Shown here: in pieces, positions 10,764 to 36,472 of the stretch
Layout of the letters: every line of letters starts with the position of its first letter
Numbering within the stretch: the first letter of the stretch is position 1
DNA from: a virus
Length of the DNA: 43,970 bases
Reading direction: 5' to 3' (one strand)
IMG/VR virus record: IMGVR_UViG_3300004457_000002
Location: 1-43,970 of that record
Notes under the pieces: generated by a model
What the model was told of the DNA's origin: nothing
The model's input: the letters and a program-made list of their open reading frames with translations, nothing else
Database searches by the model: none
Translations under genes and position numbers: made by a program

Positions 10764-11831
10764 TTAAACCAATATTGCCCGAACGGTTGGGCTGTTCTTT
10801 GTGCAATCCCAGCAGTCGGAGGCGTTATCTGGAAGGTTCTGAGCAAGCCACAATATTTTTTCATCATAGCTTTGCTGCATCATAGCCCGCCGTTCTAAGG
10901 CTGCCTCACCTGCAAGGATTGTGTGCTGGTTAATCCGGTTCGTCTCTATCGTTGCACTGATTGCCTTAACGGTTGTTTTAGCTTGAATTGCCCGACCTAC
11001 CACGTTTTTGATCTGGAATTGCGCTATGTTTTCAAGCTCACAAATCCAGTCCAGCGACGCGCAAGTAAAGTAACCCTCGAAAGCTAGGCCGTTGAAATCA
11101 GTGCCTCCGATATACTCGTTCGTTTCGACAAAATCCGACGTAGTGAAGCCCCCTGCGTTTAAATGCACCATCCATGCCGGGCTAGCACCGCCGCAACACC
11201 GTTTTGCATTGTTCTGGAAAAACCTGATACCAGCCGCTTCATACTTGAAGTTGTAGTACAGGTCATTGATTCCAGAAACATACATTGGTAGCGTCTTTGC
11301 GGTTGGTAGGGTAGTCTTTACGAATCGGTTTGCAGTGGCATTCAATGTGATTGTGTTGGCCACATAGTCCGGGTCTGTGCTGCTTACTTCTAAGTCAACC
11401 GTTCCCGTCACATTGCCACCAAACCAAACCGCTGTAAGTACAAAAGCACCGCCTTTGATCGCCTTTCGCGGGGCAATCTGCGCACCTGCATAGGTATTCG
11501 TGGTTTGGCTTAACGTCGTGCCTTGAGCGTTACCTATTGCGCCATTCCATTGAACTATTCGAGATTTTCGAGTAGTTGCCAAGGCTGCGCTCATGTCGGT
11601 CTTGAAGTCCCGTATGGCATCCGCCCGACATTGTACCAGCAAATCCCACACATCCGATTCAAGGCAATTTGTCGAGTTAAGCAACGAATCAAGAACAGGA
11701 TAACCATACTCTCGATCCGTTGCGTAATAGCCTGTGCTGCTTGTCGCAAAACCAGCATCCCACCCGGCTGCGTAACATGCGCAATCGTCCGGGGCAATCC
11801 CAATTATCGTATCTAAGCAGGTTAGGCTCAT
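10764..11831 (-). CDS. Structural protein of unknown role, Cys-rich
   Basis: 355 residues. Begins with LTCLDTIIGIAPDDCACY and has further Cys pairs (KRCCGG near 216, CWDC near 343). The C-terminal third is helical (about 270-340), the middle beta-rich. No characterised family is recognised, but its position between the capsid genes and tail-tube-like genes suggests a virion component such as a tail-sheath-like or connector protein. It shares the PDDCA motif with the next gene downstream. Confidence 0.6.
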   Translation of the reverse strand: MSLTCLDTIIGIAPDDCACYAAGWDAGFATSSTGYYATDREYGYPVLDSLLNSTNCLESDVWDLLVQCRADAIRDFKTDMSAALATTRKSRIVQWNGAIGNAQGTTLSQTTNTYAGAQIAPRKAIKGGAFVLTAVWFGGNVTGTVDLEVSSTDPDYVANTITLNATANRFVKTTLPTAKTLPMYVSGINDLYYNFKYEAAGIRFFQNNAKRCCGGASPAWMVHLNAGGFTTSDFVETNEYIGGTDFNGLAFEGYFTCASLDWICELENIAQFQIKNVVGRAIQAKTTVKAISATIETNRINQHTILAGEAALERRAMMQQSYDEKILWLAQNLPDNASDCWDCTKNSPTVRAILV

Positions 11832-14903: not shown

Positions 14904-17459
14904 TTATTCAATCTGATTTTGCACCTCAATCTGCCTAATAACCCTATTCCCCTCTTTCCATTCCGTAACCATCTCCCCCGCCTCATTCCGATAATGGATA
15001 GGCCGTGTACGCCAATAGTCGATCTGCTTATCTGCTGCCATCAAAGCAGCTTCTTTGTATGCGTCCTTCATTACGTCAACTTGCAACGATAATTTGCTTT
15101 CTTCGAGCTTGCTTTGTTGCCCACGTAACCCCATAGCAAAGGCAAACAGCGGATCGGAGTGTACGCGCTGCCCAAGTAGGGCATAATGCACCAATTGCTT
15201 ATTGGACATTCGTTCAAATCCTAAACGGGCGTTGTCGCTGGATTTAATCACTCGCTCGTCTTTAGATAAATTGACAGGTATACTATCACTTGTCCACGTT
15301 CCTTCACCCCGGATACGCTCCGTACCTGTTGCAAAGTTTTGGGTTTTACCTGCTTCACTTGCTGCCTGTGAACGCCCAGCGGCAACCAGTCGGGAAATGA
15401 TAGCCAAACCACCAACGGCCAAGACAAGGCCAATAAGACCTTTTGAGGCTTCCGCGCTAATCAGTTTTGCAACGGCTAATGTTAATTCAACGGCCTGTTG
15501 CCCGGCTGCGATGATCTTACGTTGGTTCGCTGCCTTGCGTTCAATTTCCAGTTTCTTGTTTTCGCTGTCTCGCAAAAGGCGCTCTTGTTCTGCAACCCGT
15601 TTCTTTGCCCCGTCAACATCATTTGCCAACCCTTCATCGGCTAACTTTTGCTGTTCTTCTAGGGCTTTCTTTTCGACTCCGAGGCGTTCGTTTATTTTTT
15701 CAATAAGTGCATCCTGTTGGGCTATACGTAGTTCAAACCGGGCTTGTTCAGCTTCAAAAAAAGCATTGATTGCTTCGGGTGCAAGTTGGCCTATTAACTG
15801 CTTTGCGGCCTCGTTCCCTTTTTCTTTTTGCCTGGCCGATTCCAGGCTTTGACCTTGAGCTATAGCTGTTGCAAGTGCTTTACCTGCTTCCAGTCCATCA
15901 GCGCGCAATCTTTCAGCTAGTGGCTTTGCGGTTTGGGAAGAAACAAGATCGGCAATATTCCCGGTTACTGGATCGGTAGCGGCTTTCAATAGTCGCTCTA
16001 ATCCGCCCGTGACAACTTCAAGCGACTTGCCAAAACTTGCCCGCTCAAAATCAATATCGGCAATATCCTGTAAAGGTTTGAACAGTCGTTCAATATCTTG
16101 AGCAGTTTCACCCGTCCCAAGTTCTTTTGCAAGTCGGGTGTATTCAGCTCGAAGCCTTTCGACCTCAGCAGTAGCGTTTGCAAATTGCAATTGAATGCCG
16201 TCGTTTTCATCGCCAAGCTTTACTCTTGCCTCTGTGGTTGTGGTGAGTAGGTCTTGGATAGACTTTTGTAGCCCTTCAATGCGCTGCTTTTCGGCTGCTG
16301 CTGCTTGCGATTGTTCAGCGCGGATAGATTGTGCCTGGTTGAACGCTTCGGATTGAATACCAAGTAGGGTTTCTTGTGCGTCGCCAAGTTCCCCAATTTG
16401 GGCAAAAATTGTACTTGCGCGCTTGAATGCTTCGGCAGGGCTAACCCCTTGTATTCTTTTTGCAAGAATTTCAGTTGTTAGTATCCCTTGATTCGACAAG
16501 TCTACAATCTGCTTTGCTGACTTAATTTGCTGCTCTTGCCCACCTGCTACTCTTGCATTTAAGGCAATTTCAGTAAGTATTCTTTTCTCGTCTGCTCTTG
16601 CTTGAAGTTCTGACAATGCGCCACGCTTTTTGGCTGCGGCTTCACGTACTGCAAAGGTTTTAGTTGTATTATCTGCAATTAGGTTTAATTCTTCAATTTC
16701 CTTTTTCCTTAATGAAGCTGTTGCGGCCTGTTCTTGCTTTTGTCGCTCCAACCCAATGCGCTGCGTTTCAAGCTTACCTTCAAGTGCGATTTGTTGCCGT
16801 ATCTGAATATTGAAATCTGCTGTTTCCGCTGCTGCATCCCTTACCGCATCCCTCAGCGACTTTTGACCGGTTGCGGCCTGTATCAACTGGTTGCCCCATT
16901 TTCCAAGCGCGGTAATGCCAATATCAAGCGCAATTTTACCTTGCGCCAAGCCTACACGTACTTTATCCAAGTTGCCTTGGAATTTAGAGAACGCAGCAAC
17001 CAACGCAGCGCCAACAACGGCAACTAAGGCCAATGCACCCAGGCGAAGCACGCCAAACCCTTTTGCAGCACCCGCCGCATCCTTAGCCGCACCCTGGCTA
17101 CTTGAGCCAACATCTTTTAACCCGCCCTTTACATTTTGTAAGCTATCGGATAGGTCGTTAAGCGATACGCCGCCAACAGAGATGTTACCAAACAGCGATT
17201 TCAAGCCCCGCCCAAAGCGCCCGGTTTCCTGTTCAGCTTCCTTGGTTTTCTTCGCTGTCTTTTCGACTTGCCCGGCGTATTGGTCTAGCTGTTTTGCTGT
17301 TTTCGAGGTATTATCTGCAATGGCTTGGAGTGCGCCTGTCGCGTCCTGCTCTAACTTTTTATATTCATTATCGGTGCGTTCGATCTGGTCAGCGATCCCC
17401 GCCATGACTTGTTCGACATTCGTATCATCAACCCGAAACCGAAAAGTTGTATCTGCCAT
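14904..17459 (-). CDS. Tape measure protein
   Basis: 851 residues, mostly long helices and coiled coil (about 1-120 and 220-690) with hydrophobic stretches near 140-160 (GVLRLGALALVAVVGAALVA) and 675-705 (LISAEASKGLIGLVLAVGGL). This is the typical make-up of a phage tail tape measure protein, which sets tail length and may pass through the host membrane. It follows the frameshifting tail chaperone genes, as expected, apart from the inserted ParB-like gene. The order is unusual: it precedes the scaffold and capsid genes. Confidence 0.85.
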   Translation of the reverse strand: MADTTFRFRVDDTNVEQVMAGIADQIERTDNEYKKLEQDATGALQAIADNTSKTAKQLDQYAGQVEKTAKKTKEAEQETGRFGRGLKSLFGNISVGGVSLNDLSDSLQNVKGGLKDVGSSSQGAAKDAAGAAKGFGVLRLGALALVAVVGAALVAAFSKFQGNLDKVRVGLAQGKIALDIGITALGKWGNQLIQAATGQKSLRDAVRDAAAETADFNIQIRQQIALEGKLETQRIGLERQKQEQAATASLRKKEIEELNLIADNTTKTFAVREAAAKKRGALSELQARADEKRILTEIALNARVAGGQEQQIKSAKQIVDLSNQGILTTEILAKRIQGVSPAEAFKRASTIFAQIGELGDAQETLLGIQSEAFNQAQSIRAEQSQAAAAEKQRIEGLQKSIQDLLTTTTEARVKLGDENDGIQLQFANATAEVERLRAEYTRLAKELGTGETAQDIERLFKPLQDIADIDFERASFGKSLEVVTGGLERLLKAATDPVTGNIADLVSSQTAKPLAERLRADGLEAGKALATAIAQGQSLESARQKEKGNEAAKQLIGQLAPEAINAFFEAEQARFELRIAQQDALIEKINERLGVEKKALEEQQKLADEGLANDVDGAKKRVAEQERLLRDSENKKLEIERKAANQRKIIAAGQQAVELTLAVAKLISAEASKGLIGLVLAVGGLAIISRLVAAGRSQAASEAGKTQNFATGTERIRGEGTWTSDSIPVNLSKDERVIKSSDNARLGFERMSNKQLVHYALLGQRVHSDPLFAFAMGLRGQQSKLEESKLSLQVDVMKDAYKEAALMAADKQIDYWRTRPIHYRNEAGEMVTEWKEGNRVIRQIEVQNQIE

Positions 17460-17680: not shown

Positions 17681-17715
17681 ACAAAATAAAAAAGCCGGGC
17701 ATTTCTACCCGGCTT
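17681..17715 (-). terminator. Intrinsic terminator after ParB-like gene
   Basis: AAGCCGGG (17692-17699) and CCCGGCTT (17708-17715), followed on the minus strand by a T-rich tract. It ends the autonomously transcribed ParB-like unit. Confidence 0.85.
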
Positions 17716-17720
17716 AGTTG

Positions 17721-18527
17721 TTATATTGGTCTTAGCCTTTTTTCCGTTTCTTGATGATAGGTCAATGTTTTTAACTCGACCCCACTTCTTATTGCATTCC
17801 AAGCCTTAAAGATTAAGGCAAGTCTTGCGTCATGCGTCATTTTTGACTCTTTATTTATCTTATCATCAAAGAGTTTTTTTCGCAAAAGCAAAATAACTTT
17901 ATCTCTTACGTCGCCTGTACATAATTGGTTGAAAAAAGAATCTGCCTGTTGTTTGTCGATTTCAGATAAAAACATATATATGGCGCAAATTTCAGACAAA
18001 ACAAGGCATTTTGACATTGATTCATACCATCTTCCAGCCTTCATTATAGACAAATCCCATTCCCCAGCCTTTTCTTTATATTTAGATAATACCTCCTGGT
18101 TTGTTAGCTTTGTTGTTCTTGCTCCTGACCTCCTAAATGCGTATTCGTTTTTTATTCTATCATAAACTTGAATAGATGTACTAACCCTGATTGCATTAGG
18201 TATTCCATACACGGAAAGCGTATCGCCACCAGACCTTCCCCTACCTGTATCTATAACATCGAATACTTGATCATCTAATCCATAAACAATAAGGCACTTA
18301 ACAGAAACACCACTTTTTATTATTGCATTTAATCGATGTTGTCCATCGAGCAATCTATTTGTTTTTGATACTTTTATAGACTCACCCGTTTGCCCTCTCC
18401 ATTTTCCGGTTCTCATGTCGTCAGTGTACCTTAGTAGCAAGTCCTCCTTTAGTGGCCTGTTTTTATCGTTGCCTTCTAGTAAGTGGGCTGCATAAACTGG
18501 ATCAATCAATACTTCTTTAAATTCCAT
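17721..18527 (-). CDS. ParB-like nuclease-domain protein
   Basis: 268 residues from the ATG at 18527; a longer in-frame GTG start at 18617 would place translation through a terminator and a hairpin loop and is unlikely. The motif LLDGQHRLNAIIKSG near residues 60-74 is the ParB/Srx-type DGQHRL signature, which binds nucleotide in this superfamily. The rest is helical and resembles phage proteins annotated as ParB-like or DNA-binding. It has its own consensus promoter, a structured leader ending in a terminator just before the ATG, and its own terminator, so it is a self-contained cassette between the tail chaperones and tape measure. Confidence 0.75.
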   Translation of the reverse strand: MEFKEVLIDPVYAAHLLEGNDKNRPLKEDLLLRYTDDMRTGKWRGQTGESIKVSKTNRLLDGQHRLNAIIKSGVSVKCLIVYGLDDQVFDVIDTGRGRSGGDTLSVYGIPNAIRVSTSIQVYDRIKNEYAFRRSGARTTKLTNQEVLSKYKEKAGEWDLSIMKAGRWYESMSKCLVLSEICAIYMFLSEIDKQQADSFFNQLCTGDVRDKVILLLRKKLFDDKINKESKMTHDARLALIFKAWNAIRSGVELKTLTYHQETEKRLRPI

Positions 18528-18535
18528 TGTGAGTA

Positions 18536-18630
18536 AAATAAAAAATGGCCGTCCGGTAGAGTGCGAACGGCCAAAGGTTAGCAAATTGTTTGCTAATTTG
18601 TCAACCCGGCGGTACACTCTACCTTACCGC
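18536..18630 (-). ncRNA. Structured leader with kissing-loop terminator (attenuator)
   Basis: Read on the minus strand: first hairpin GCGGTA/TACCGC (18609-18630) with loop AGGTAGAGTG; second hairpin TTAGCAAA/TTTGCTAA (18578-18596); third hairpin TGGCCGT/ACGGCCA (18546-18573) followed by T6. The loop of the third holds CACTCTACC, the perfect 9-nt complement of GGTAGAGTG in the first loop. The T-tract ends about 10-14 nt before the ATG at 18527. This is either a transcription attenuator controlled by a loop-loop contact, or a short stand-alone RNA of about 100 nt. I know no named class with this structure. Confidence 0.65.
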
Positions 18631-18641
18631 TAGGTCTATGT

Positions 18642-18672
18642 CAAAGATAGCACAATATTTCGATTCTCCAAA
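18642..18672 (-). promoter_or_regulatory. Consensus Bacteroidota promoter for ParB-like unit
   Basis: On the minus strand TTTG (18669-18672), 19 nt, then TATCTTTG (18642-18649), a perfect match to TTTG-N19-TAnnTTTG. It lies directly after the previous terminator and 12 nt before the first leader hairpin. Confidence 0.8.
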
Positions 18673-18705
18673 TAAAAAAGCCCGCACATTTCTGCACGGG
18701 CTTAA
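18668..18705 (-). terminator. Intrinsic terminator after tail chaperone genes
   Basis: An 11-bp stem with two G-U pairs (AAGCCCGTGCA with TGTGCGGGCTT on the minus strand) followed by T6. It separates the tail chaperones from the ParB-like cassette; its T-tract abuts the -33 element of the next promoter. Confidence 0.8.
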
Positions 18706-18729: not shown

Positions 18730-19023
18730 CTACTTGCTTTTTGTTTTTTCAATTTGGTTCATTCTCATTTCTGCGATTTCGTCCGATTTAACTAGCAACC
18801 TCAGAAATTCAGGGTAGGGCGTAACCCAAAGATCGGCCATCGACATTTCAAGCATTTGAGCGACAAACAACACCATTTCGGTATACTTTTCGTCAATCAA
18901 ATCCGATGTATTTTCCCACTTGCCCCGCTGACTTGTTACAAATCCGTGAAGCCGAACACCCGCGCCGCTTTTTTGACTCTTTCCAATAATTGCGCTTGCA
19001 ATGTGAGTTTGTAGGTACTCCAT
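18730..19023 (-). CDS. Tail assembly chaperone, gpT-like frameshift part
   Basis: 97 residues from its own ATG, but better read as the -1 extension of the overlapping 220-aa gene: the frame opens immediately after a TGA at TTTTTTT (19038-19044) and overlaps the upstream gene for about 100 nt. A slip there gives a 289-residue fusion. The peptide is helical (ALMEMSM-type helix, then charged ERM segment). Two overlapping frames joined by a -1 slip and located upstream of the tape measure are the hallmark of gpG/gpGT tail chaperones, which coat the tape measure during tail assembly. Confidence 0.7.
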   Translation of the reverse strand: MEYLQTHIASAIIGKSQKSGAGVRLHGFVTSQRGKWENTSDLIDEKYTEMVLFVAQMLEMSMADLWVTPYPEFLRLLVKSDEIAEMRMNQIEKTKSK

Positions 19024-19598
19024 TGCATAGCTAAGGTAAAAAAATCATCCTCAATCAAGCCCTCCGCAGCCCAATCCTCTATTTTCCGGTTTGCATGGTC
19101 AATATCCCATGTTTTCAAATCCTCGCCCGGTTCGTAGATGAACAGCGTACACATTATCAAGGACGCTTGCCACTTGCGGTTAGACTCGCTCAAGCCCCGT
19201 TCCAAGTTGACAATTTCTTCCACTAGCCCGGTAAAATTCGCGTCCTTGCCACCTACAAGGGAGTTGCAAATTTTCTTCATTCTGGATAGACTGGAAATAA
19301 CTTCACCAAGCCCGGCGTTAAACGGAACTACAACAGACATTTTTTCTAGTTCCCGTTGGCGGCGTAGGGGTAGCCCGTCCTTTGGGTTGCGAATATAATA
19401 TTCCTTTCCATTTGCCGTGAAGCCCAGTATCCAGGTTCCGTCCTCCGTAACAAGCCGCTGAACTTGACCCTGTTGCTTAGTAGTGTAGTATTCCGCAATG
19501 TCTGCGCCCAACGTCGTGCGCAATACCTCTGCCACGTCCTGCGTATCTTGTAGCCTTTCCTTAAGCGCATCTGCTTTGCTTTTTCGTTTATTAAACAT
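18936..19598 (-). CDS. Tail assembly chaperone, gpG-like
   Basis: 220 residues, charged and mostly helical (FNKRKSKADALKERLQ at the start, ERVKKAARVFGFTDL at the end). Residues 185-187 (D-F-F) are encoded by gaT TTT TTT, a U-UUU-UUU slippery heptamer in the correct phase. A hairpin (TGCAATG-GAG with CTC-A-CATTGCA) begins 10 nt downstream. By position and overlap it corresponds to gpG of siphophages, although sequence identity to known chaperones cannot be judged here. Confidence 0.65.
   Translation of the reverse strand: MFNKRKSKADALKERLQDTQDVAEVLRTTLGADIAEYYTTKQQGQVQRLVTEDGTWILGFTANGKEYYIRNPKDGLPLRRQRELEKMSVVVPFNAGLGEVISSLSRMKKICNSLVGGKDANFTGLVEEIVNLERGLSESNRKWQASLIMCTLFIYEPGEDLKTWDIDHANRKIEDWAAEGLIEDDFFTLAMQWSTYKLTLQAQLLERVKKAARVFGFTDL
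19003..19044 (-). promoter_or_regulatory. -1 frameshift site in tail chaperone genes
   Basis: TTTTTTT at 19038-19044 is phased as X-XXY-YYZ in the 220-aa gene. The -1 frame is closed by TGA directly before it and open after it. A hairpin of 7 bp plus 3 bp starts at 19027 after a 10-nt spacer. Confidence 0.7.
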
Positions 19599-35127: not shown

Positions 35128-35236
35128 GGGGACGCAGTTAATTCTGGTGAGACTAGTTAATCATCGGAGGCGAAACAGCCGGATTGTATACCCGGTGTCT
35201 AGTACTATTGCAGGTTCGAGTCCTGTCCGTACCCAC
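35128..35236 (+). tRNA. Degenerate tRNA-like sequence
   Basis: The 3' part holds a textbook T-arm, GCAGG-TTCGAGT-CCTGT, followed by CCGTACCCACA. The 5' part, GGGGACG then AGTT-AATTCTGGTGA-GACT, looks like an acceptor strand and D-arm with the GG pair in the loop. Acceptor pairing GGGGACG/CGTACCC has one mismatch and a 1-nt offset. A CCGG/CCGG hairpin with loop ATTGTATAC could be an anticodon arm (GTA, Tyr), but about 24 nt too many separate it from the D-arm. A remnant tRNA, a tRNA mimic or an attachment-site core are all possible; a functional tRNA is doubtful. Confidence 0.4.
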
Positions 35237-35242
35237 AAATCA

Positions 35243-35308: not shown

Positions 35309-35338
35309 TTGATTTTTTGATTTTATTTTGTATCTTTG
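35309..35338 (+). promoter_or_regulatory. Rightward promoter 2 (replication genes)
   Basis: TTG (35309-35311), 19 nt of T-rich spacer, TATCTTTG (35331-35338). Close to the consensus and immediately upstream of the second kissing-loop leader. Confidence 0.7.
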
Positions 35339-35342
35339 CAGT

Positions 35343-35446
35343 AAATACGATTGGACGTGGAACCCCTACCGTATTTTCTTTATGGGATTATAGTTACAAG
35401 AATGCCTGTCGGTTCCACAACTTTAGACGGGCATTTTCTTTTTTTG
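35343..35446 (+). ncRNA. Structured leader with kissing-loop terminator (attenuator)
   Basis: First hairpin AAATACG/CGTATTT (35343-35349, 35370-35376) with a 20-nt loop containing GTGGAACC (35357-35364). Terminator hairpin AATGCCTGTC/GACGGGCATT (35401-35410, 35426-35435), one G-U pair, then TTTTCTTTTTTT. Its loop begins with GGTTCCAC (35411-35418), the exact complement of GTGGAACC. The T-tract ends 28 nt before the ATG at 35474. Same plan as the leader at 18.54-18.63 kb but with unrelated sequence. Confidence 0.65.
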
Positions 35447-35473
35447 TACTTTCGTAACTTAACCATAAAGACA

Positions 35474-36472
35474 ATGAAACAAGTTTTAAAAGCACTTCAC
35501 CAGCGGCCTATCGCTGTTTATCCAATCTACATTGATTTAACAGGTTCAATTTCCGGGGGCTTACTCCTTTCGCAACTGCTATATTGGCTTGAAAAAGTAG
35601 ACCGGGAAATCTGGAAAACGGATGCCGAGATAATGGCAGAAACGCGGTTAACTCAAACTGAATTTAGAAACGCCAAAAAAGCTATATCTGCCTTGCCTTT
35701 CGTTTCTGTAACTAAACGAGGCATACCCCCTAAGACTTTTTATGCTGTTGATTGGGATGGATTAGCTAATGAAATAGACTCTCTCATTTCGTCGGTTACC
35801 TACAAAATGGATCGTAGGTTACCTACGAATAAAAGGGGAGGTAACCTACCAAATGTACGGTCGGTAACCAACGGCGTAATACATAGACTACATTCAGAGA
35901 ATACAACAAAGATTACTTTTGAACCTCAAAATGAAATTGAAGGAAATGATTTGCTTGTAACAACGATTGATGAAGTAGACGAAACAGAGGTTAAGGTTAT
36001 AGAAATCATTCCTTCAATACAAGAACAAACCCCACCCCTCAATTCCGCAACACCCCCCGCCCCAAAGAAAGCGAAGCGAGAACCAAAATACATCTACCCC
36101 CCCACCCAGGAGGAATTGGTTCCACTGTTCTATGCGAAATTCCAAGAAAAGAAACGCGACCACTCAAATATTATCGACTGCTGGAATTGGTCAAACATGG
36201 AAGCGGAAAAGTTCTTTTTGCATTGGGAGCGTAAAGGATGGACTATTCAGAAGCTAGGCAATGCGATCGCAACATGGGTGAACGGCTCGATCACATTTGG
36301 TACTGTCACCAAACCCTGCCCTATCCAGTACAAGAACAACCCCGCGAACGCACAACCAGCGGCGCAACCTACCAACCTGCACGTAGAAACCAGACTTCCA
36401 GAACAAGACAAAGCAGCCCGCAAAGCTATGTTTGCAGCGGCTAAGGCGGAGTTAAACCAAATTGGAGCATGA
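35474..36472 (+). CDS. Replication initiator, wHTH replisome-organiser type
   Basis: 332 residues from the ATG at 35474 (the frame extends upstream only through the terminator). The N-terminal domain reads KALHQRPIAVYPIYIDLTGS followed by LLLSQLLYWLEK and IWKTDAEIMAETRLTQTEFR, the winged-helix pattern of phage replication proteins that bind the origin. A Pro/Thr/Glu-rich linker (about 165-225) leads to a C-terminal helical domain (about 245-290, WNWSNMEAEKFFLHWERKGW) as in helicase-loader partners. First gene of the replication operon, next to the structured control region, with attenuated expression. Confidence 0.75.
   Translation: MKQVLKALHQRPIAVYPIYIDLTGSISGGLLLSQLLYWLEKVDREIWKTDAEIMAETRLTQTEFRNAKKAISALPFVSVTKRGIPPKTFYAVDWDGLANEIDSLISSVTYKMDRRLPTNKRGGNLPNVRSVTNGVIHRLHSENTTKITFEPQNEIEGNDLLVTTIDEVDETEVKVIEIIPSIQEQTPPLNSATPPAPKKAKREPKYIYPPTQEELVPLFYAKFQEKKRDHSNIIDCWNWSNMEAEKFFLHWERKGWTIQKLGNAIATWVNGSITFGTVTKPCPIQYKNNPANAQPAAQPTNLHVETRLPEQDKAARKAMFAAAKAELNQIGA

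What the first reader, a model, noticed from the sequence alone, without database searches (positions are those of the whole stretch)
18536..18672. Kissing-loop attenuator in front of the ParB-like gene
A perfect promoter (TTTG-N19-TATCTTTG) is followed at once by hairpin 1 (GCGGTA/TACCGC) with loop AGGTAGAGTG, hairpin 2, and a terminator whose loop contains CACTCTACC. The two loops are complementary over 9 nt. The terminator ends just before the ATG, so read-through must be controlled. A loop-loop contact between a first hairpin and a terminator is an unusual switch design.
Basis: partly seen in the sequence, partly recalled or inferred. Interest (0 to 1): 0.75.

Follow-up and report, generated by a model that had tools for sequence, protein, structure and literature searches.

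The report
Kissing-loop terminator leaders in Bacteroidota phages
In front of some genes of viruses that infect Bacteroidota, the first RNA hairpin and the loop of a built-in stop signal carry matching letters that stay matched while the letters themselves change, so the RNA very likely folds back on itself to decide whether the gene is read.

Summary
On the minus strand (18678-18527) a TTTG-N19-TATCTTTG promoter is followed by hairpin H1, hairpin H2, a terminator hairpin T and the ATG of a ParB-like gene; the H1 and T loops are complementary over 9 nt. Three related phage contigs keep the leader with different letters (GTGATGTAC/GTACATCAC), still complementary. The window holds a second element (+35331-35437), also kept in relatives with changed, still complementary loops. 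A descriptor scan of 1.41 Mb of phage contigs gave 44 elements against 1 with flipped loops; 43 of 44 precede an ORF. In a search whose pattern left the complement out, 54 of 63 unique matches have the exact 7-nt complement, one has a G-U wobble, and eight look like chance. Public phages with it: Flavobacterium 11b, Cellulophaga phi10:1 and phi19:1, Bacteroides LoVEphage. Cargo: mainly HNH homing nucleases, then replication genes; with nucleases, promoter, leader and gene are missing together at empty sites. No Rfam family matches. Most likely it is a cis-acting transcription attenuator whose terminator is clamped by a kissing loop. The RNA architecture is well supported; attenuation, the direction of the kiss effect and any signal are inferred.

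The parts
18678..18703 (-). Terminator of the upstream tail-gene transcript, just before the promoter
   Evidence: 11 pairs, then TTTTATTT; conserved in L003 and L004
18642..18672 (-). Bacteroidota-type promoter TTTG-N19-TATCTTTG
   Evidence: the -7 box TATCTTTG is conserved in L003 and L004
18609..18630 (-). H1 hairpin GCGGTA/TACCGC; loop AGGTAGAGTG; kissing segment 18623-18615
   Evidence: homologues with other stem and loop letters
18578..18596 (-). H2 hairpin in the spacer, TTAGCAAA-CAA-TTTGCTAA; nearly unchanged in the relatives
18546..18573 (-). T: intrinsic terminator hairpin; its 8-nt loop CACTCTAC pairs with the H1 loop (with one stem base, 9 nt, 18563-18555)
18534..18545 (-). U-run TTTTTTATTTT
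17721..18527 (-). Cargo gene: ParB-like protein, 268 aa (phrog_5931; weak hit to phrog_12305, ParB-like partition protein)
17692..17715 (-). Terminator after the cargo gene; closes the cassette between two terminators
35309..35338 (+). Promoter of the second element (TTG...TATCTTTG)
35343..35376 (+). H1 of the second element; kissing segment GTGGAACC 35357-35364
35399..35437 (+). T of the second element; GGTTCCAC in its loop (35411-35418), then a U-run
35474..36472 (+). Cargo of the second element: replication-initiation (O-like) protein, 332 aa from this ATG
   Evidence: phrog_9773, on the longer reading 35351-36472

Best explanation
A cis-acting RNA attenuator. RNA polymerase starts at a Bacteroidota promoter and at once makes a small 5' hairpin (H1; loop typically 8 nt). 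After a mostly AU-rich spacer (14 nt or more, sometimes with a hairpin of its own) it makes an intrinsic terminator hairpin whose apical loop (typically 8 nt) holds 7-9 nt complementary to the H1 loop. As this loop leaves the polymerase it kisses H1; the contact pre-organises and clamps the terminator, so most transcripts end at the U-run as leader RNA of roughly 100 nt, and the hairpin near the start codon probably also hinders initiation on the few that pass. The gene, which starts a few tens of nt further on and has no room for another promoter, is expressed by the read-through fraction. Shown here: anatomy, recurrence, compensatory change of the loops, joint presence and absence with nuclease genes. 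Inferred: that T terminates in vivo, that the kiss favours termination, that there is a regulated state at all.
For: Loop complementarity kept through letter changes: W, L003, L004 at two loci; 54 exact + 1 wobble of 63 unique matches, 8 chance-like; kiss helix 100% of cells paired in 50 distinct sequences, two pairs changed on both sides; whole structure 99.3% against 30-61% for slid partners. Excess over controls: 32 v 1; 65 v 5; 44 v 1; >=6-nt match in 43 of 74 leaders with ATG v a permuted mean of about 4. Position: 43 of 44 followed by an ATG-started ORF of at least 30 aa; a run of 4-9 T directly after the basal stem in 51 of 52, not selected for. Kiss compatible with closed hairpins: the complement stops at the loop edges in 43 of 43 and the nested best fold equals H1+T in 32 of 43; no spacer under 14 nt in 63 elements, about what is needed to bridge closed T, kiss and H1. 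H1 loop 8 nt in 40 of 63 and T apical loop 8 nt in 52 of 63.
Against: No transcript, termination or probing data were available. In the window's own element the unconstrained nested fold is a long loop-loop helix that opens both hairpins, 1.2 kcal/mol better than H1+H2+T without the kiss, so an antiterminator-like fold is possible there. Spacer length correlates negatively with helix length (rho -0.68), against a simple bridging rule; long spacers often contain a hairpin, but I only saw this by eye. No signal or partner was found. Five type-A leaders (L148, L154, L162, L164, L214) show no ATG directly after the U-run.
Confidence: 0.6

Rival explanations
1. The kiss is an antiterminator: pairing of the emerging T loop with H1 delays or blocks closure of the terminator, so the default is read-through, and termination needs H1 to be occupied or altered.
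For: T loops are made before the 3' arm of the terminator; in the window's own element and some others a nested loop-loop helix that opens the hairpins is as good as H1+T; strong promoters with a gene right behind make sense if it is read.
Against: Complementarity is confined to the loops (0 of 43 extend into a stem) and 32 of 43 nested best folds are H1+T; spacers of at least 14 nt would let the kiss coexist with a closed terminator.
Confidence: 0.22
2. The product is the terminated RNA: an abundant small RNA of about 100 nt, with one kissing fold, that acts in trans; the gene behind is secondary.
For: Strong promoter plus terminator; each genome's elements carry different loops (16 pairs in 10 genomes, none identical; 3 records with two type-A terminators, all different). 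IsrK and the P4 CI RNA show phage leaders that do both (passages of PMC4825925).
Confidence: 0.13
3. Post-transcriptional lock: T with its kiss mainly hides the ribosome binding region; termination is minor.
For: The ATG lies a few tens of nt or less behind T.
Against: The U-run directly after a G+C-rich stem is kept in 51 of 52, which a translational lock would not need.
Confidence: 0.05

Closest known systems
pT181-type antisense transcription attenuator
   Same: Hairpin-loop kissing that ends in an intrinsic terminator in a leader; interior loops in the hairpins (passages of PMC4878617)
   Different: There the kiss is with a separate antisense RNA and works by sequestering an anti-terminator; here both loops lie in one transcript, no anti-terminator pairing is seen in most elements and no antisense promoter of the local type was found near the element
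Phage P4 CI RNA / seqA-seqC immunity leader
   Same: Phage leader with internal complementary segments and premature termination before replication genes (as told in PMC4825925, passages)
   Different: There a processed RNA acts as antisense on seqA and seqC; here an intrinsic hairpin terminator carries one loop and the other is at the 5' end; trans action not tested
IsrK of prophage Gifsy-1
   Same: One promoter gives a short RNA ending at a terminator and a read-through mRNA (abstract and passages of PMC4825925)
   Different: IsrK works by refolding the mRNA for translation; no H1-terminator kiss is described in the passages read
Guanidine-II riboswitch (mini-ykkC)
   Same: Two small hairpins proposed to touch by their loops in a leader (abstract in the search listing)
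   Different: Ligand-binding conserved loops there (recalled); here loop letters vary freely and no Rfam family matches
ColE1 RNA I - RNA II kissing complex (recalled)
   Same: 7-nt loop-loop helix between two hairpins
   Different: Two molecules, primer control; here one nascent transcript and a terminator

Membership tests
Transcription attenuator (leader with intrinsic terminator) | Promoter, then intrinsic terminator with U-run, before the regulated gene, no promoter between | tested here: met
   (43 of 44 followed by an ORF)
Transcription attenuator (leader with intrinsic terminator) | Alternative antiterminator fold that excludes the terminator | tested here: inconclusive
   Not seen in 32 of 43; a competing nested fold exists in the window's element
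Transcription attenuator (leader with intrinsic terminator) | Measured change of termination with a signal | not testable with these tools
   needs transcription assays
pT181-type antisense attenuator | Antisense RNA gene opposite the leader | tested here: not met
   no TTG-N17..23-TAnnTTTG promoter on the + strand near 18.5 kb; the sub-threshold Rfam hit ctRNA_pT181 has 19.6 bits against a gathering score of 56
Guanidine-II riboswitch and other Rfam families | Match to the covariance model at gathering score | tested here: not met
   0 matches in the window and in five loci with elements
Phage P4-type immunity RNA | Processed leader RNA acts in trans to end transcription | not testable with these tools
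   no expression data

The most novel reading that the evidence does not exclude
A family of orthogonal RNA locks: each leader has its own loop pair, the terminated leader RNA can pair in trans with nascent leaders of the same loop type, and loop identity therefore works as a specificity code that limits expression of mobile nuclease cassettes or replication genes (self-limitation or superinfection immunity, as with the P4 CI RNA), with new specificities arising by paired loop changes.
Probability: 0.13. Interest if true: 0.92.

Novelty: new variant of a known kind. Interest (0 to 1): 0.74.

Why it matters
It defines an RNA element class for which I found no description: a 5' hairpin that kisses the loop of an intrinsic terminator, with freely variable but matched loops. 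It recurs in front of homing nucleases and replication genes of Bacteroidota phages, where transcription control is poorly known. It is small, modular and naturally orthogonal, so it allows direct tests of how a tertiary contact in nascent RNA changes termination, and it occurs in named phages (11b, phi10:1, phi19:1, LoVEphage).

Tried and rejected
Chance: rejected by flips, shuffles, permutations and the pattern that did not include the complement. Known RNA family: none at gathering score; sub-threshold hits are far below their cut-offs. Mutually exclusive antiterminator: not supported in most elements, possible in the window's own. H2 as a general part: H2 letters found only in the relatives of this phage (the fourth hit, L007, has no such leader by eye). 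Pattern on the conserved ATGGGATTATA of the second locus: 8 stretches, only L017 and L018 are leaders. ParB-like protein as a probe: one distant viral locus, none in genome contigs. Cellular copies: the type-A pattern gave 0 of 10 genomes and 0 of 299 genomes drawn from the genus of G009; this covers only that loop type. Of 16 public Bacteroidota phage records scanned (15, 11b; 50,000 of 53,664 bases of phi10:1), 4 have an element; a weak P12002L candidate was not counted. Dropped rows: L115, L120, L189 (+6172) and L133 (+7547), as chance-like; overlapping copies of the same loci left out. (113 upstream regions of 22 cargo families): 71 had a loop match of 6 nt or more, but many are AT-rich and not meaningful; of the misses, L254, L011, W and L017 do hold the complement in larger loops; the other misses look like operon-internal genes (by eye).

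Full report
What is there. The feature lies on the minus strand of a 43,970-base virus record. Reading 5' to 3': a terminator of the upstream transcript (18703-18678), promoter TTTG-N19-TATCTTTG (18672-18642), H1 with loop AGGTAGAGTG, H2 in the spacer, and T, an intrinsic terminator with an 8-nt loop. A U-run follows, then the ATG (18527) of a 268-aa ParB-like protein (phrog_5931, E 6e-58; weak hit to a ParB-like partition family) and a further terminator (17715-17692). Promoter, leader and gene thus sit between two terminators. They lie between two overlapping ORFs that look like a tail-chaperone frameshift pair (18936-19598 and 18730-19023) and a long ORF that may be the tape measure (14904-17459, no family hit); these two roles are my inference from order, overlap and length.

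Is it more than chance? GGTAGAGTG and its complement occur only in this element. A descriptor asking for a -7 box, H1 within 25 nt, a terminator within 170 nt and complementary loops finds exactly two elements with 8 nt or more in the window, and none in 150 dinucleotide shuffles. The second element is on the plus strand at 35331-35437, before a replication-initiation gene.

Relatives. A portal-protein search found three contigs with the portal at 89% identity. All keep the leader at the same place. In L003 and L005 (identical there) and L004, H1 has other letters with GTGATGTAC in its loop, and the terminator loop has GTACATCAC: a nine-base exchange on both sides. The gene behind differs: a diverged ParB-like protein in L003, an unrelated one in L004. 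At the second locus the pairs are GTGGAACC, GGAGAGAG and GTGAGACCC with their complements, again before different genes.

A class. The same design is in Flavobacterium phage 11b (CGGGCAGG/CCTGCCCG before a small ORF) and Cellulophaga phage phi10:1. Eighty contigs with an 11b-like terminase were scanned. With at least 3 G/C in the match, 32 elements against 1 with flipped loops were found over all loci then held. Over 2.41 Mb the count was 65 against 5. In 1.41 Mb of records fetched whole or nearly so it was 44 against 1, and 43 of 44 are followed by an ATG-started ORF of at least 30 aa. In a count not selected on complementarity, 43 of 74 promoter-H1-terminator-ATG leaders match over 6 nt or more, against a permuted mean of about 4. 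Many of the other 31 lie in coding sequence or had the wrong hairpin picked by the script (L058, for instance, does hold a 7-nt match), judged by eye.

Test without selection on the complement. The pattern GTAG-NGTNGTNG-CTAC, 15-45 nt, GATAAAG fixes H1 and one flank of the terminator loop but not the complement. In viral contigs it hit 105 stretches, 80 listed. In the loci held there were 113 matches, 63 unique: 54 carry the exact 7-nt complement, one (L213) has a single change that leaves a G-U pair, and eight lack promoter and terminator by eye and look like chance. On 50 distinct sequences (of 52 aligned) the kiss helix is paired in 100% of cells, with two pairs changed on both sides, and the terminator stem has five such pairs; the whole structure is 99.3% paired against 30-61% for slid partners. 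A run of 4-9 T follows the stem directly in 51 of 52.

Anatomy. T is composite: basal stem, often an internal loop, an apical stem, and an apical loop that is 8 nt in 52 of 63; the H1 loop is 8 nt in 40 of 63. In several elements the internal loop reads AGUA opposite GAA (11b, G026, G027, G038, L052, L057, strand-swapped in G048), which resembles the bulged-G motif (recalled), or UGA-type letters that could form tandem G-A pairs (the type-A group). Others, the window's included, have none. The summed kiss duplex averages about -10.6 kcal/mol without any loop penalty. Complementarity never extends into a stem (0 of 43), and in 32 of 43 the nested best fold equals H1+T. In the window's own element a nested loop-loop helix is 1.2 kcal/mol better than H1+H2+T without the kiss. 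No spacer is shorter than 14 nt; by a rough estimate that is the length needed to bridge the closed complex. However, spacer length falls as helix length rises (rho -0.68), so bridging alone does not set it.

Cargo and mobility. Of 48 downstream proteins scanned, 12 match HNH_3 and 11 NUMOD4; three are helicases, two have DUF3987, one is a cytosine methylase and one a GIY-YIG nuclease (PHROGs agree for HNH). For several cassettes, relatives lack promoter, leader and gene together, with the flanks meeting within a few bases: L070_2367 (gap 1), L113_1285 (gap -2, many loci), L044_17834 (gap -1 in three loci). The leader therefore seems to travel with the nuclease gene. Within one cargo family the loops differ between phages yet match: three helicases with CTACCAC, CCACTAC and GTTGCAG; the 761/758-aa proteins with CATCCAC, GCATCAC and TGGTGG.

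Spread. Of 16 public Bacteroidota phage records, four have an element: 11b, phi10:1, phi19:1 and LoVEphage. In LoVEphage it lies between a repressor-like gene (S24/LexA-like, leftward) and the rightward genes, where an early lytic leader would be expected. The type-A pattern is in 0 of 299 genomes drawn from the genus of a Flavobacterium genome and 0 of 10 others.

How it most likely works. The gene can be reached only by read-through, so the leader acts as an attenuator. Because the contact is confined to the loops and both hairpins can stay closed, I think it clamps the terminator, lowers read-through and keeps a nuclease or replication gene low. The opposite sign cannot be excluded. Different loops within one genome (16 pairs in 10 genomes, none identical; 3 of 49 records with two type-A terminators, all different) hint at avoidance of cross-talk, but about one identical pair is all that chance would give, so this is only suggestive.

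Known relatives by mechanism. pT181-type attenuators use kissing with a separate antisense RNA and an anti-terminator (passages of PMC4878617). The P4 CI RNA and IsrK are phage leaders with premature termination or read-through (passages of PMC4825925). None of the papers listed in searches appears, by title and start of abstract, to describe a 5' hairpin kissing the loop of an intrinsic terminator; the library is partial. No Rfam family matches at its gathering score.

Noticed in passing
window 35382-35393 (+): ATGGGATTATA is kept in the spacer of the second-locus leader in all three phages (ATG GGA TTA TAG in the window, a possible three-codon ORF); its role is unknown.
   Followed up: partly
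window 18578-18596 (-): H2 (TTAGCAAA..TTTGCTAA) keeps its letters while H1 and T have changed completely in the relatives; it could be a protein or DNA site.
   Followed up: partly
window 18968-18974 (-): AAAAAAG lies in the overlap of ORFs 18936-19598 and 18730-19023: a likely -1 frameshift site of tail chaperone genes.
   Followed up: no
L148 3889-3962, L154 4189-4262, L162 5951-6024, L164 6418-6491, L214 13417-13490: Type-A leaders followed by TATAAC.. without an ATG directly behind the U-run; possibly leaders whose gene was lost or replaced.
   Followed up: no
L013 2531-2619 (-), L016, L020: CATGGGATTATA behind a TATATTTG box but without a kissing pair, shortly before what looks like a tRNA gene; not explained.
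   Followed up: no
L343 (LoVEphage record position 10810, -): A second, weaker candidate element whose kissing segment contains the palindrome GTTAAC, so it could also pair between molecules; the downstream reading is not an annotated gene.
   Followed up: partly
window 35150-35240 (+): A stretch that looks tRNA-like by eye just upstream of the second promoter (also in L003, with other letters); ARAGORN finds no tRNA in the window.
   Followed up: partly
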